Below, piece by piece: positions 29,307 to 31,781 of a stretch of DNA of 64,000 nucleotides; position 1 is the first letter of the stretch, and every line of letters starts with the position of its first letter. The DNA is from Synechococcus sp. CCY 0621. GTDB taxonomy: Bacteria > Cyanobacteriota > Cyanobacteriia > PCC-6307 > Cyanobiaceae. Location: contig NZ_JAFKRH010000015.1 in the NCBI RefSeq assembly GCF_019038465.1, positions 186,001 through 250,000 of the forward strand. Direction: 5' to 3'. Below the pieces are notes generated by a model. It searched no databases, was not told the origin of the DNA, and was given only the letters and a program-made list of their open reading frames with translations. A program made the position numbers and the translations under genes.

Positions 29307-30302
29307 TCAACGCGGGGCGCTGCCGGGCTCTGCCAGGGCGGCCAGCAGGAAGCCGTCCCGGAAGGCGTCGCCCGGGTCGGCGCCGCGCTTGAGGGCGGCC
29401 TCAACGTCGAGCAGGCGGCGCAGCAGGGTCAGCAGCTGCTCGGGGCTGCGGCCGCGGATCTGTTTGCGCATCACATAGATCCGCTTGGGATTGCCGATCC
29501 CCGCGGCTTTGGCGATCACGGCCACGTCCTGCTCGCCGCTGCGCTCCAGCAGGCACACCCACAGCCAGCCCCGGATCTGGCTGGCCAGGGCCGCCACGAT
29601 GCGCAGGGCGGGTTCGTTGGCCTCCAGCAGGGCCTCCACCAGGGCGATCGCCTCGGCGGGGCGCTGGGCCAGCAGGGCATCCCCCACGGCCAGGCTGCTG
29701 GTGACCTGGCCGCCGATCAGGGCGGCCACCGCCTCGGCCGTGATGGGGCCGGCGGCGCTGCCGGCGTGGAGCGCCAGCTTCTCCAGCTCGCTGGCGAGCC
29801 GCAGGCCATCGCTGCCGATCGCCTCGGCCAGGGCTTCAGCCGCCCCGGGGGCCAGGGCCAGGCCCCGGTCCCGGGCGGCGCTCTCCACCCGCTCGATCTG
29901 GCCGGCCCCGTCCCAGATGGGGGGCAGGGGGAAGGACCGCTCCTCCGCCACGGCCCGCAGCCGCTTGGTGGTGCGCAACCGGGCGTCGGGCTTGCCTTCG
30001 CTCACCAGGAACAGGTGGCCATCGGCGGGGATCAGCTCGAGGGCGGCCTCCAGCTGGGCGGCCAGCTCCGCCGGGCAGGCCTGGCAGAAGGGACTGCGCT
30101 GCAGCACCACCACCCGGGCTCCGGCGCCGAAGGGGGCCGTGCGGGCCTCCTCCAGGGCTTGGGCCGCCTGACCGGGATCGGCACCGTCGAGGCGGCTGAG
30201 GTTGATCGAGGCCCAGGCCGGATCCACCAGGGCCTCGATCTGGGCCGCCAGGGCCCGCTGGCGGGCGGCTTCATCGTCGCCCCAGTAGAGGTGAATCGGC
30301 AT
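29307..30302 (-). CDS. holA: DNA polymerase III subunit delta
   Basis: HolA is the clamp-opening subunit of the clamp loader that works with DnaX (8.2-9.9 kb). The 331-residue protein has the N-terminal MPIHLYWGDDEAARQRAL, the KRLRAVAEERSFPLPP region, LALAPGAAEALAEAIGSDGLRLASELEKL (as separate short motifs) and the C-terminal KQIRGRSPEQLLTLLRRLLDVE. It abuts the Phd-PIN gene as TGAATG and is followed by lysC, so all three are probably on one mRNA. Confidence 0.9.
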   Translation of the reverse strand: MPIHLYWGDDEAARQRALAAQIEALVDPAWASINLSRLDGADPGQAAQALEEARTAPFGAGARVVVLQRSPFCQACPAELAAQLEAALELIPADGHLFLVSEGKPDARLRTTKRLRAVAEERSFPLPPIWDGAGQIERVESAARDRGLALAPGAAEALAEAIGSDGLRLASELEKLALHAGSAAGPITAEAVAALIGGQVTSSLAVGDALLAQRPAEAIALVEALLEANEPALRIVAALASQIRGWLWVCLLERSGEQDVAVIAKAAGIGNPKRIYVMRKQIRGRSPEQLLTLLRRLLDVEAALKRGADPGDAFRDGFLLAALAEPGSAPR

Positions 30303-30971
30303 TCAGTGCAGGGGCGCCGGCTGGGGCAGGGCGGCGAGCAGGCGGGGGTCCCGGCTGATCATCGCCGTGGCGCCACCCTGCAGGGCCGAGGCCAGCTCCA
30401 GGGCCACCTCGGGCGCCATTGCGGCGTGGATGCCTGGCCGCTGCAGGCGCGCTGCCGCCAGGGCGACCTGGGGCGTGAGGCTCACCAGGGTCCAGGCCGC
30501 CGGGTCGCTGAACACCGCTTCGTAGCGGGCCGCCAGGGCTTCATCCCCCAGGCGCAGGGGCCCCTCCATCAGCGTCATCAAGGTGGCCATGCTCAGCACG
30601 CCCCGCCAGCGGCCGGCGGCGATCGCGGCGATCAGGGGCTCTGCGTGGCGGCTGGAGGCGTCGCCGCGCAGGAAGGGGATCAACACCGTGGCGTCGACGG
30701 CCACAGCCGAACCGAGGGTCAGGCTGGCGCTGCTCTCCAGGGGTTGGACCGGCCAAGGTTGGCTCGGCGGGAGCGGGTCCGGCCAGCAGGCGAGGCCGCT
30801 GCCCTTGAGGGCGATCAGGGCCTGCCGCTGGGGACGGTGGCGACGCCAGAGCGGCACCAGGGCCGCCACCGGGTGGCCGTGGCGTGAGATCAGGGTCTCC
30901 TCGCCCCCGTGGGCTCGATCGAGCAGCTCGGGGAAGCGCTTCCTGGCCTCCAGGACGCCGAGGGTGTCCAT
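30303..30971 (-). CDS. Single-chain Phd/YefM antitoxin-PIN toxin fusion
   Basis: The 222-residue protein joins two modules that are normally separate genes. Residues 1 to about 60 are a Phd/YefM antitoxin (VLEARKRFPELLDRAHGGEE, LISRHGHPVAALVPL). After a Pro-rich linker (about residues 64-85), residues about 88-215 resemble a PIN ribonuclease: AVDATVLIPFLRGD (first Asp), LMTLMEGPLRLG (Glu) and a terminal ISRDPRLL (Asp). The usual DAxxLATAL acidic site reads APEVALELASAL, so the third carboxylate is altered. A 17-bp palindrome lies 24 bases upstream. Its stop abuts the holA start. No separate toxin or antitoxin gene is seen beside it. Confidence 0.75.
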   Translation of the reverse strand: MDTLGVLEARKRFPELLDRAHGGEETLISRHGHPVAALVPLWRRHRPQRQALIALKGSGLACWPDPLPPSQPWPVQPLESSASLTLGSAVAVDATVLIPFLRGDASSRHAEPLIAAIAAGRWRGVLSMATLMTLMEGPLRLGDEALAARYEAVFSDPAAWTLVSLTPQVALAAARLQRPGIHAAMAPEVALELASALQGGATAMISRDPRLLAALPQPAPLH

Positions 30972-30995: not shown

Positions 30996-31012
30996 CTGTA
31001 CACAATGTACAG
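30996..31012. promoter_or_regulatory. Palindromic operator candidate (CTGTACA-CAA-TGTACAG)
   Basis: A perfect 7-bp inverted repeat with a 3-base spacer sits 24 bases upstream of the Phd-PIN start, in the 132-bp gap shared with the divergent cobH gene. Phd/YefM proteins bind such palindromes to repress their own promoter, so autoregulation is the obvious reading. It resembles the cyanobacterial LexA box only loosely, because the spacing between GTAC halves is one base too long. Confidence 0.6.
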
Positions 31013-31103: not shown

Positions 31104-31781
31104 ATGCCGCGCCAGGCGATCAACAGCTTCGAGGCCTCGCTCGATCACCCGATCTTCCAGGAGAGCGTGCGGCGCATCCGCGCCTGGCTCGGGCCCACCG
31201 GCCTGGTGGGGGTCGAGCAGGAGGTCCTGGAGCGCCTGGTGCACAGCAGCGGCGACCTGGCCCTGGCGCCGGATCTGCGTATCGGGCCAGGGGCCTGCGC
31301 TGCCGGCCTCAAAGCCCTGGCGGCCGGCGCGCCGATTCTCACCGACACGGCGATGGCCGCGGCGGCCGTGGCCCCCATGGCCCGGCGCACCTTCGCCAAT
31401 CCGGTGCATTCGGTGCTGGCCTGGGCGCCGGCCGTGGCGCCGGCTGGTGGCACGCGGGCGGCGGCGGGCATGGAGCGGGCGCTGGCGGAGCACCCGGGGG
31501 CGGTGGTGCTGGTGGGCAGCGCCCCCACGGCCCTGGAGCGGCTGATCGAGCTGGTCGAGGCCGGAACCATCGCCGCCCCGGCCCTGGTGATCGGCATGCC
31601 GGTGGGGTTCGTGGGGGTGGCCGAGAGCAAGCGCCACCTGGCCGCCAGCGATCTGGTCCAGATCCGCCTGGAGGGCAGCAAGGGCGGGGCCGGCCTGGTG
31701 GGTGCCGCCGCCAATGCCCTGCTGCGGCGGGCCTGGCTGGATCAGGCGCCCCAGGATCAGGCGGCCCTGGATCCCCCCTGA
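31104..31781 (+). CDS. cobH: Precorrin-8X methylmutase (CobH/CbiC)
   Basis: The 225-residue protein moves the C11 methyl group of (cobalt-)precorrin-8 to C12, giving (cob/hydrogeno)byrinate in cobamide synthesis. Landmarks are the N-terminal [11 protein letters not shown], the catalytic His in [51 protein letters not shown] and a glycine-rich C-terminal [17 protein letters not shown]. The ATG at 31104 gives the expected length. No other cob gene is in the window. It converges with mutS, overlapping its 3' end by 25 bases. Confidence 0.92.

What the first reader, a model, noticed from the sequence alone, without database searches (positions are those of the whole stretch)
30303..30971. Antitoxin and PIN toxin fused in one polypeptide
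Phd/YefM and PIN modules are normally separate, overlapping genes. Here one 222-residue chain holds both, joined by a Pro-rich linker. One of the PIN acidic positions is altered (PEV instead of DA). A fused antitoxin could keep a toxin permanently neutralised, or the protein could have become a regulator. It sits directly upstream of holA, an essential replication gene.
Basis: partly seen in the sequence, partly recalled or inferred. Interest (0 to 1): 0.6.

Follow-up and report, generated by a model that had tools for sequence, protein, structure and literature searches.

The report
Domesticated dead toxin-antitoxin fusion, DNA-binding
In some small planktonic and freshwater cyanobacteria, a two-gene toxin-antitoxin switch next to the replication gene holA has fused into one protein whose toxin half has lost its RNA-cutting residues and whose antitoxin half still looks like a DNA-binding repressor with its own conserved DNA site, so a selfish poison system seems to have been turned into a house regulator.

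Summary
On the minus strand (30971..30303) one 222-aa ORF carries a Phd/YefM domain, a Pro-rich linker and a PIN fold. It is no sequencing error: 46 distinct intact fusions occur at the same place (cobH // fusion-holA) in six genera of picocyanobacteria, one clade (100/99). At the same locus three relatives still have two separate genes, Phd plus PIN, with all four PIN catalytic acids; two-gene relatives also occur in Proteobacteria and Myxococcota. Every fusion has lost catalytic acid 3 and 42 of 46 acid 2; the window copy has D93, T133, V189, D208. Both domains are under purifying selection (dN/dS 0.18 and 0.29), the linker hardly (0.75). A palindrome CTGTACA-N3-TGTACAG, with the TGTACA core of YefM operators, lies 24 bp before the start codon, is conserved in fused and unfused forms and absent where the gene is absent. 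Verdict: a domesticated, catalytically dead toxin-antitoxin fusion, probably kept as a DNA-binding autoregulator of the holA operon; not a self-neutralised active toxin. Unexpectedly, further copies of the palindrome are scattered between genes almost only in genomes that carry the gene; in two genera they cluster around oriC. Their role is open.

The parts
30303..30971 (-). fusion gene (222 aa), Phd/YefM antitoxin domain + linker + degenerate PIN domain
   Evidence: translation; intact in 46 distinct homologues
30822..30971 (-). residues 1-50, Phd/YefM DNA-binding domain; R10 and R30 invariant in 22 homologues and aligned with YefM R10/R31
   Evidence: dN/dS 0.18
30783..30809 (-). residues 55-63, remnant of the antitoxin's putative toxin-binding motif (L-x-GSG-x-x-x-W), kept from the two-gene form
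30744..30782 (-). residues 64-76, Pro-rich linker that takes the place of the antitoxin C-terminal tail
   Evidence: pLDDT under 50 at 71-77; dN/dS 0.75 over residues 64-88; comparison with L124/L132
30330..30743 (-). residues 77-214, former toxin: PIN fold
   Evidence: dN/dS 0.29 over residues 89-214
30693..30695 (-). D93, catalytic acid 1, kept
30573..30575 (-). T133, at the place of catalytic acid 2 (Glu), lost
30405..30407 (-). V189, at the place of catalytic acid 3 (Asp), lost
30348..30350 (-). D208, catalytic acid 4, kept here (lost in 23 of 46 fusions)
30996..31012 (.). operator-like palindrome CTGTACA-N3-TGTACAG, 24 bp before the start codon, in the divergent cobH/fusion intergenic region
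29307..30302 (-). holA, DNA polymerase III delta subunit; ATG follows the fusion's TGA directly (TGATG overlap in most same-genus relatives)
31104..31781 (+). cobH/cbiC, precorrin-8X methylmutase, divergent neighbour (start codon inferred)

Best explanation
A two-gene Phd-PIN (VapBC-type) toxin-antitoxin pair sitting upstream of holA was fused once into a single polypeptide in an ancestor of the fused forms now seen in several picocyanobacterial genera. In the fused line the antitoxin tail became a Pro-rich linker and the PIN catalytic site was lost. What remains is a domesticated DNA-binding protein. Its Phd domain binds the inherited TGTACA-N3-TGTACA operator and represses the fusion-holA operon, in which the fusion's stop touches the holA start. 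The PIN fold, kept by selection but catalytically dead, most likely serves as a dimerisation or oligomerisation module, so that repression no longer depends on a toxin:antitoxin ratio. It probably also binds further copies of the palindrome elsewhere in the genome. Shown here: fusion, conservation, one origin, loss of catalytic residues, purifying selection, conserved palindrome, co-occurrence of gene and dispersed sites. Inferred: DNA binding, repression, role of the PIN fold, control of holA.
For: 46 distinct intact fusions at one locus in six genera. Three two-gene versions at that same locus and four in other phyla keep D-E-D-D; fusions lose acid 3 in 46/46, acid 2 in 42/46, and none keeps four. 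Fusions form one clade, 100/99, on a tree built without the catalytic columns. dN/dS 0.18 for the Phd domain, 0.75 for the linker, 0.29 for PIN. The palindrome has 11-12 of 12 matches in 39/46 fusions, never in shuffles; it has 9-12 of 12 before the two-gene relatives and at most 7 in 19 genomes without the gene. YefM operators have TGTACA cores (PMC7730913), and R10/R31 of YefM are essential for operator binding (PMC4803016); the aligned R10/R30 are invariant in 22 fusions. Exact TGTACAN3TGTACA sites occur in 37/51 genomes with the gene against 9/349 without. In the genome with a broken fusion (G009) its own operator and one orthologous site each carry a mutation.
Against: No binding, expression or phenotype data. 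The two TGTACA cores are 9 bp apart centre to centre here, 12 bp in YefM. Extra sites lie between convergent genes as often as at promoters (22 convergent, 15 divergent, 37 tandem), so they are not simply a promoter regulon. The gene is missing from most of the family and broken in at least three genomes (G009, G209, G198), so it is dispensable. A sigma-70 consensus scan found no promoter in the 350-bp region. Gene and site co-occurrence is partly shared ancestry.
Confidence: 0.7

Rival explanations
1. A self-neutralised but potentially active toxin, like EzeT: the antitoxin domain blocks the PIN RNase in cis until a protease cuts the linker.
For: The linker is predicted flexible; cis-neutralised fusions are known (EzeT). 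D93 and D208 are kept here, and the putative toxin-binding GSG...W motif is retained.
Against: Two of four catalytic acids are lost in the window copy, acid 3 in all 46 and acid 2 in 42 of 46, while unfused relatives keep all four.
Confidence: 0.05
2. An anti-addiction decoy: the antitoxin part, or the dead PIN, binds and neutralises related active PIN toxins brought in by plasmids or other elements.
For: The motif L-x-GSG-x-x-x-W is conserved. Separate PIN toxins exist in these genomes.
Against: The distal antitoxin tail of the two-gene form is gone, and the motif's Arg is Leu in the window copy. No plasmid relative was found. It does not explain the conserved operator or the dispersed sites.
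Confidence: 0.1
3. A decaying remnant of a toxin-antitoxin pair without function.
For: Catalytic residues lost; patchy distribution; at least three broken copies.
Against: 46 intact frames, dN/dS 0.18 and 0.29 on both domains, operator conserved while its flanks diverge.
Confidence: 0.05
4. The protein only autoregulates its own operon; the dispersed palindromes are a separate repeat family (REP-like or hairpin terminators) that happens to share the core and the ancestry. (Compatible with the main claim; concerns the extra sites only.)
For: Sites are extragenic and often between convergent genes. Some have perfect arms of 15-23 bp. Positions are orthologous within a genus and mostly differ between genera.
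Against: Within one genus 15/16 genomes with the gene have sites, 1/26 without. Most sites have arms of only 7-8 bp and no T-run. Parallel decay in G009.
Confidence: 0.35

Closest known systems
VapBC / Phd-PIN type II toxin-antitoxin systems
   Same: Phd/YefM antitoxin fold, PIN toxin fold, autoregulatory-type palindrome upstream; two-gene ancestral-type forms at the same locus
   Different: One polypeptide; PIN catalytic acids lost; antitoxin tail replaced by a linker
EzeT (E. coli), cis-acting antitoxin fused to a zeta-type toxin (PMC4826407)
   Same: Antitoxin N-terminal and toxin C-terminal in one chain, likely by fusion of a bicistronic operon
   Different: EzeT keeps an active toxin; here the catalytic site is lost, and the domains are Phd and PIN
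Phd-RelE fusion of Ralstonia eutropha, yb_293189 (cited in PMC4826407)
   Same: Phd-family antitoxin fused to a toxin thought to be inactive
   Different: RelE, not PIN; reported as possibly a dead end, whereas here selection, operator and distribution point to a maintained function
Slr1999, HicA-HicB fusion of Synechocystis 6803 (PMC4963859)
   Same: Toxin and antitoxin in one protein in a cyanobacterium
   Different: Other families; reported without any fused homologue elsewhere
YefM-YoeB operator (PMC7730913, PMC4803016)
   Same: Paired TGTACA cores; R10 and the second Arg conserved
   Different: Core spacing 9 bp here, 12 bp in YefM; in two genomes four TGTACA in a 9-bp tandem array

Membership tests
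Phd/YefM antitoxin family | Significant match to the family profile | tested here: met
   Pfam PF02604 36.6 bits (cut-off 29.8), TIGR01552 25.8 bits (cut-off 20.8)
Phd/YefM antitoxin family | Phd fold | tested here: met
   VapB46 Z 7.6 at 1.2 A over 42 residues, P1 Phd Z 7.1
Phd/YefM antitoxin family | Palindromic operator upstream of its own gene | tested here: met
   Sequence only: 39/46 fusions with 11-12 of 12 matches; binding itself not tested
Phd/YefM antitoxin family | C-terminal tail that neutralises a partner toxin | tested here: inconclusive
   Motif L-x-GSG-x-x-x-W kept, distal tail replaced by the linker
PIN domain / VapC toxin | PIN fold | tested here: met
   VapC15 Z 12.3, 2.5 A over 120 residues
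PIN domain / VapC toxin | Conserved acidic catalytic residues | tested here: not met
   Acid 3 lost in 46/46, acid 2 in 42/46; window copy D93, T133, V189, D208
PIN domain / VapC toxin | RNase activity, toxicity | not testable with these tools
   needs an assay
Type II toxin-antitoxin system (two genes) | Separate toxin and antitoxin genes | tested here: not met
   One frame without stop in 46 distinct homologues
ParB-parS-like origin-proximal site binder | Palindromic sites clustered around oriC | tested here: inconclusive
   16 of 34 sites within 130 kb of dnaN, expected 3.3, in four genomes of genera g68, g32, g53; none beside its own operator near dnaN in the window's own contig, and no clustering seen in G023
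ParB-parS-like origin-proximal site binder | Sequence or fold homology to ParB | tested here: not met
   The domains found are Phd and PIN

The most novel reading that the evidence does not exclude
The dead toxin-antitoxin fusion has become an origin-region DNA-binding protein. It is encoded 11-92 kb from dnaN/oriC and has a set of palindromic sites that, in two genera, cluster within about 130 kb of oriC. It could report origin copy number (its sites titrate it as the origin is duplicated, which would relieve repression of holA) or organise the origin region, in cyanobacteria for whose relative S. elongatus no chromosomal parB was detected.
Probability: 0.15. Interest if true: 0.88.

Novelty: new variant of a known kind. 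Interest (0 to 1): 0.62.

Why it matters
Whether chromosomal toxin-antitoxin systems get domesticated is an old question, and many cases are inferred from orphans. Here the two-gene, catalytically complete form and the fused, dead form sit at the same place in related genomes, so the steps (fusion, loss of the active site, keeping of the operator, coupling to an essential replication gene) can be compared directly. The link between the gene and a genome-wide set of palindromes is testable by one ChIP-seq and would show what a dead toxin is kept for.

Tried and rejected
Sequencing or frame error at the junction: rejected, 46 distinct intact homologues. Unrelated C-terminal fold: rejected by structure comparison. 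Mobile element or defence system: no PADLOC, PHROG or plasmid match. Promoter regulon made of the dispersed sites: not supported by gene orientation; a shared regulon across genera is weak (few shared positions). The literature searches found no report of this fusion, but only an open-access library was searched. The PIN proteins of G391 and G030 (L137, L017) are separate ordinary PIN genes, not part of this family.

Full report
WHAT IS THERE. The ORF lies on the minus strand, 30971..30303, 222 aa. Pfam finds PhdYeFM_antitox at residues 1-41 (E 4e-9) and PIN at 91-211 (E 2e-4, just under its cut-off). The fusion's TGA is followed directly by the ATG of holA; cobH/cbiC is divergent on the other side. 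AlphaFold2 gives a confident two-domain model (pLDDT 84): residues 86-218 match VapC toxins (best Z 12.3), residues 1-52 match VapB46, P1 Phd and YefM.

IS IT AN ERROR? No. The fusion has an open frame in 14 genomes of the genus, the window's own included; the other 13 are 77-95% identical to it. In all there are 46 distinct sequences over six genera coded g1, g32, g53, g67, g68, g82. Named carriers include Cyanobium, Aphanothece, Synechococcus and Vulcanococcus. Wherever both flanks could be read the gene lies between cobH and holA. Nineteen genomes without it have cobH directly divergent from holA.

WHERE IT CAME FROM. Three cyanobacterial genomes (G182/L124, G243/L132, G233/L136) have two separate genes, a Phd antitoxin of about 80-90 aa and a PIN toxin, at the same locus: holA follows in all three; cobH was seen in two, the third contig ends before it. 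Two-gene relatives also occur in a myxococcal, an alphaproteobacterial, a gammaproteobacterial and a Zeimonas genome. On a tree from both domains, without the catalytic columns, the 46 fusions form one clade (100/99), with the three two-gene cyanobacterial forms beside it. Comparison shows the toxin's N-terminus (QPLD...) kept, and the antitoxin tail after L-x-GSG-x-x-x-W replaced by the Pro-rich linker.

THE TOXIN HALF LOOKS DEAD. At the four acidic positions of PIN nucleases all seven unfused relatives have D, E, D, D. Of 46 fusions, acid 1 is D in 43 and E in 3; acid 2 is acidic in only 4; acid 3 in none; acid 4 in 23. None keeps all four. The window copy has D93, T133, V189, D208. Loss of RNase activity is inferred from this, not measured.

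IT IS KEPT. Among 15 same-genus sequences median dN/dS is 0.18 for the Phd domain, 0.75 for residues 64-88 and 0.29 for the PIN domain (Nei-Gojobori, 105 pairs). Both folded parts are constrained, the linker hardly. At least three genomes have broken copies, so the gene is not essential.

THE OPERATOR-LIKE SITE. CTGTACATTGTGTACAG (read on the gene's strand) lies 24 bp before the start codon (window 30996-31012). Of 46 fusions 39 have 11-12 of the 12 core letters, never reached in shuffled upstream regions. The two-gene relatives, also those in other phyla, have 9-12 of 12; genomes without the gene at most 7. In L052 both halves have changed (CCGTACGGACCGTACGG), so the symmetry is kept. YefM operators have paired TGTACA cores, 12 bp apart, and YefM R10 and R31 are essential for binding. 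The aligned R10 and R30 are invariant in 22 fusions. Spacing here is 9 bp. In two genomes the own promoter has four TGTACA in a 9-bp tandem array.

AN UNEXPECTED LINK. The exact 17-bp palindrome occurs 1-8 times in all 14 same-genus genomes with an intact fusion and in none of the 23 without; the reversed control pattern occurs nowhere. Over 400 family genomes, TGTACAN3TGTACA is found in 37 of 51 genomes with the gene (fused, two-gene or broken) and 9 of 349 without; all nine belong to genera that carry the gene. Part of this is shared ancestry. Within the genus the sites lie at orthologous intergenic places, for example before thiC. G009, whose fusion is broken, has no exact site; its own operator and the orthologue of the site next to a chlM-like gene each carry one mutation. 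The flanking genes are convergent 22, divergent 15, tandem 37 times, so these are not mainly promoter operators. Some sites have perfect arms of 15-23 bp, most only 7-8.

ORIGIN PROXIMITY. In five genomes, the window's own included, the fusion gene lies 11-92 kb from dnaN, which lies at or near the switch of GC skew. holA also lies about 75 kb from coordinate 1 in several complete genomes without the fusion, so the gene's place is probably ancestral. Sites other than the gene's own lie within 130 kb of dnaN 16 times of 34 (expected 3.3, p about 2e-8) in G103, G224, G189 and G195. The 130-kb width was chosen after seeing the data, G103 and G224 are of one genus, and G195 alone gives no signal. 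In the window's own contig no further exact site lies near dnaN, and G023 shows no such cluster. The origin reading is therefore a lead, not a result.

MECHANISM. Best supported: a domesticated, catalytically dead Phd-PIN fusion that represses its own operon with holA through the palindrome, the PIN fold serving as a structural module. DNA binding, repression and the effect on holA are inferred. Replacing two chains by one removes the toxin:antitoxin ratio that tunes ordinary systems of this kind, so the output would be a plain autoregulator.

WHAT IS KNOWN. Fused pairs have been described: EzeT, active when freed; a Phd-RelE fusion of R. eutropha thought inactive; Slr1999. No report of a conserved Phd-PIN fusion with a lost active site was found in the library searched. 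It is a new variant of a known kind. For the origin idea: no obvious chromosomal parB was detected in S. elongatus.

Noticed in passing
L171 (G000:C16:23869-23885) and orthologues L182, L183, L188, L195, L198, L200, L201, L204: The palindrome lies 46-94 bp after a HEAT-repeat gene and about 140-260 bp before thiC in nine genomes, in some with perfect arms of 15-19 bp.
   Followed up: partly
L213 (G000:C9:43785-43801) and L205, L209, L211: Same palindrome with arms up to 17-19 bp, near a VapC-like gene and a PIN fragment; possibly a remnant of another toxin-antitoxin locus.
   Followed up: partly
G341, G162, G255, G266, G302 and four others: Genomes of gene-carrying genera with one to five exact sites but no detected fusion; recent loss or incomplete assembly not told apart.
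   Followed up: no
G103:C1:2250862-2250878: A near copy of the palindrome (one outer mismatch) lies inside the fusion gene itself.
   Followed up: no
L125, L126, L128, L129: Two-gene Phd-PIN pairs in Myxococcota and Proteobacteria with the same type of operator.
   Followed up: partly
L052 / L108 (G144): Most divergent fusion (long branch) with a symmetrically changed operator CCGTACGGACCGTACGG; a natural test of operator and protein co-evolution.
   Followed up: no
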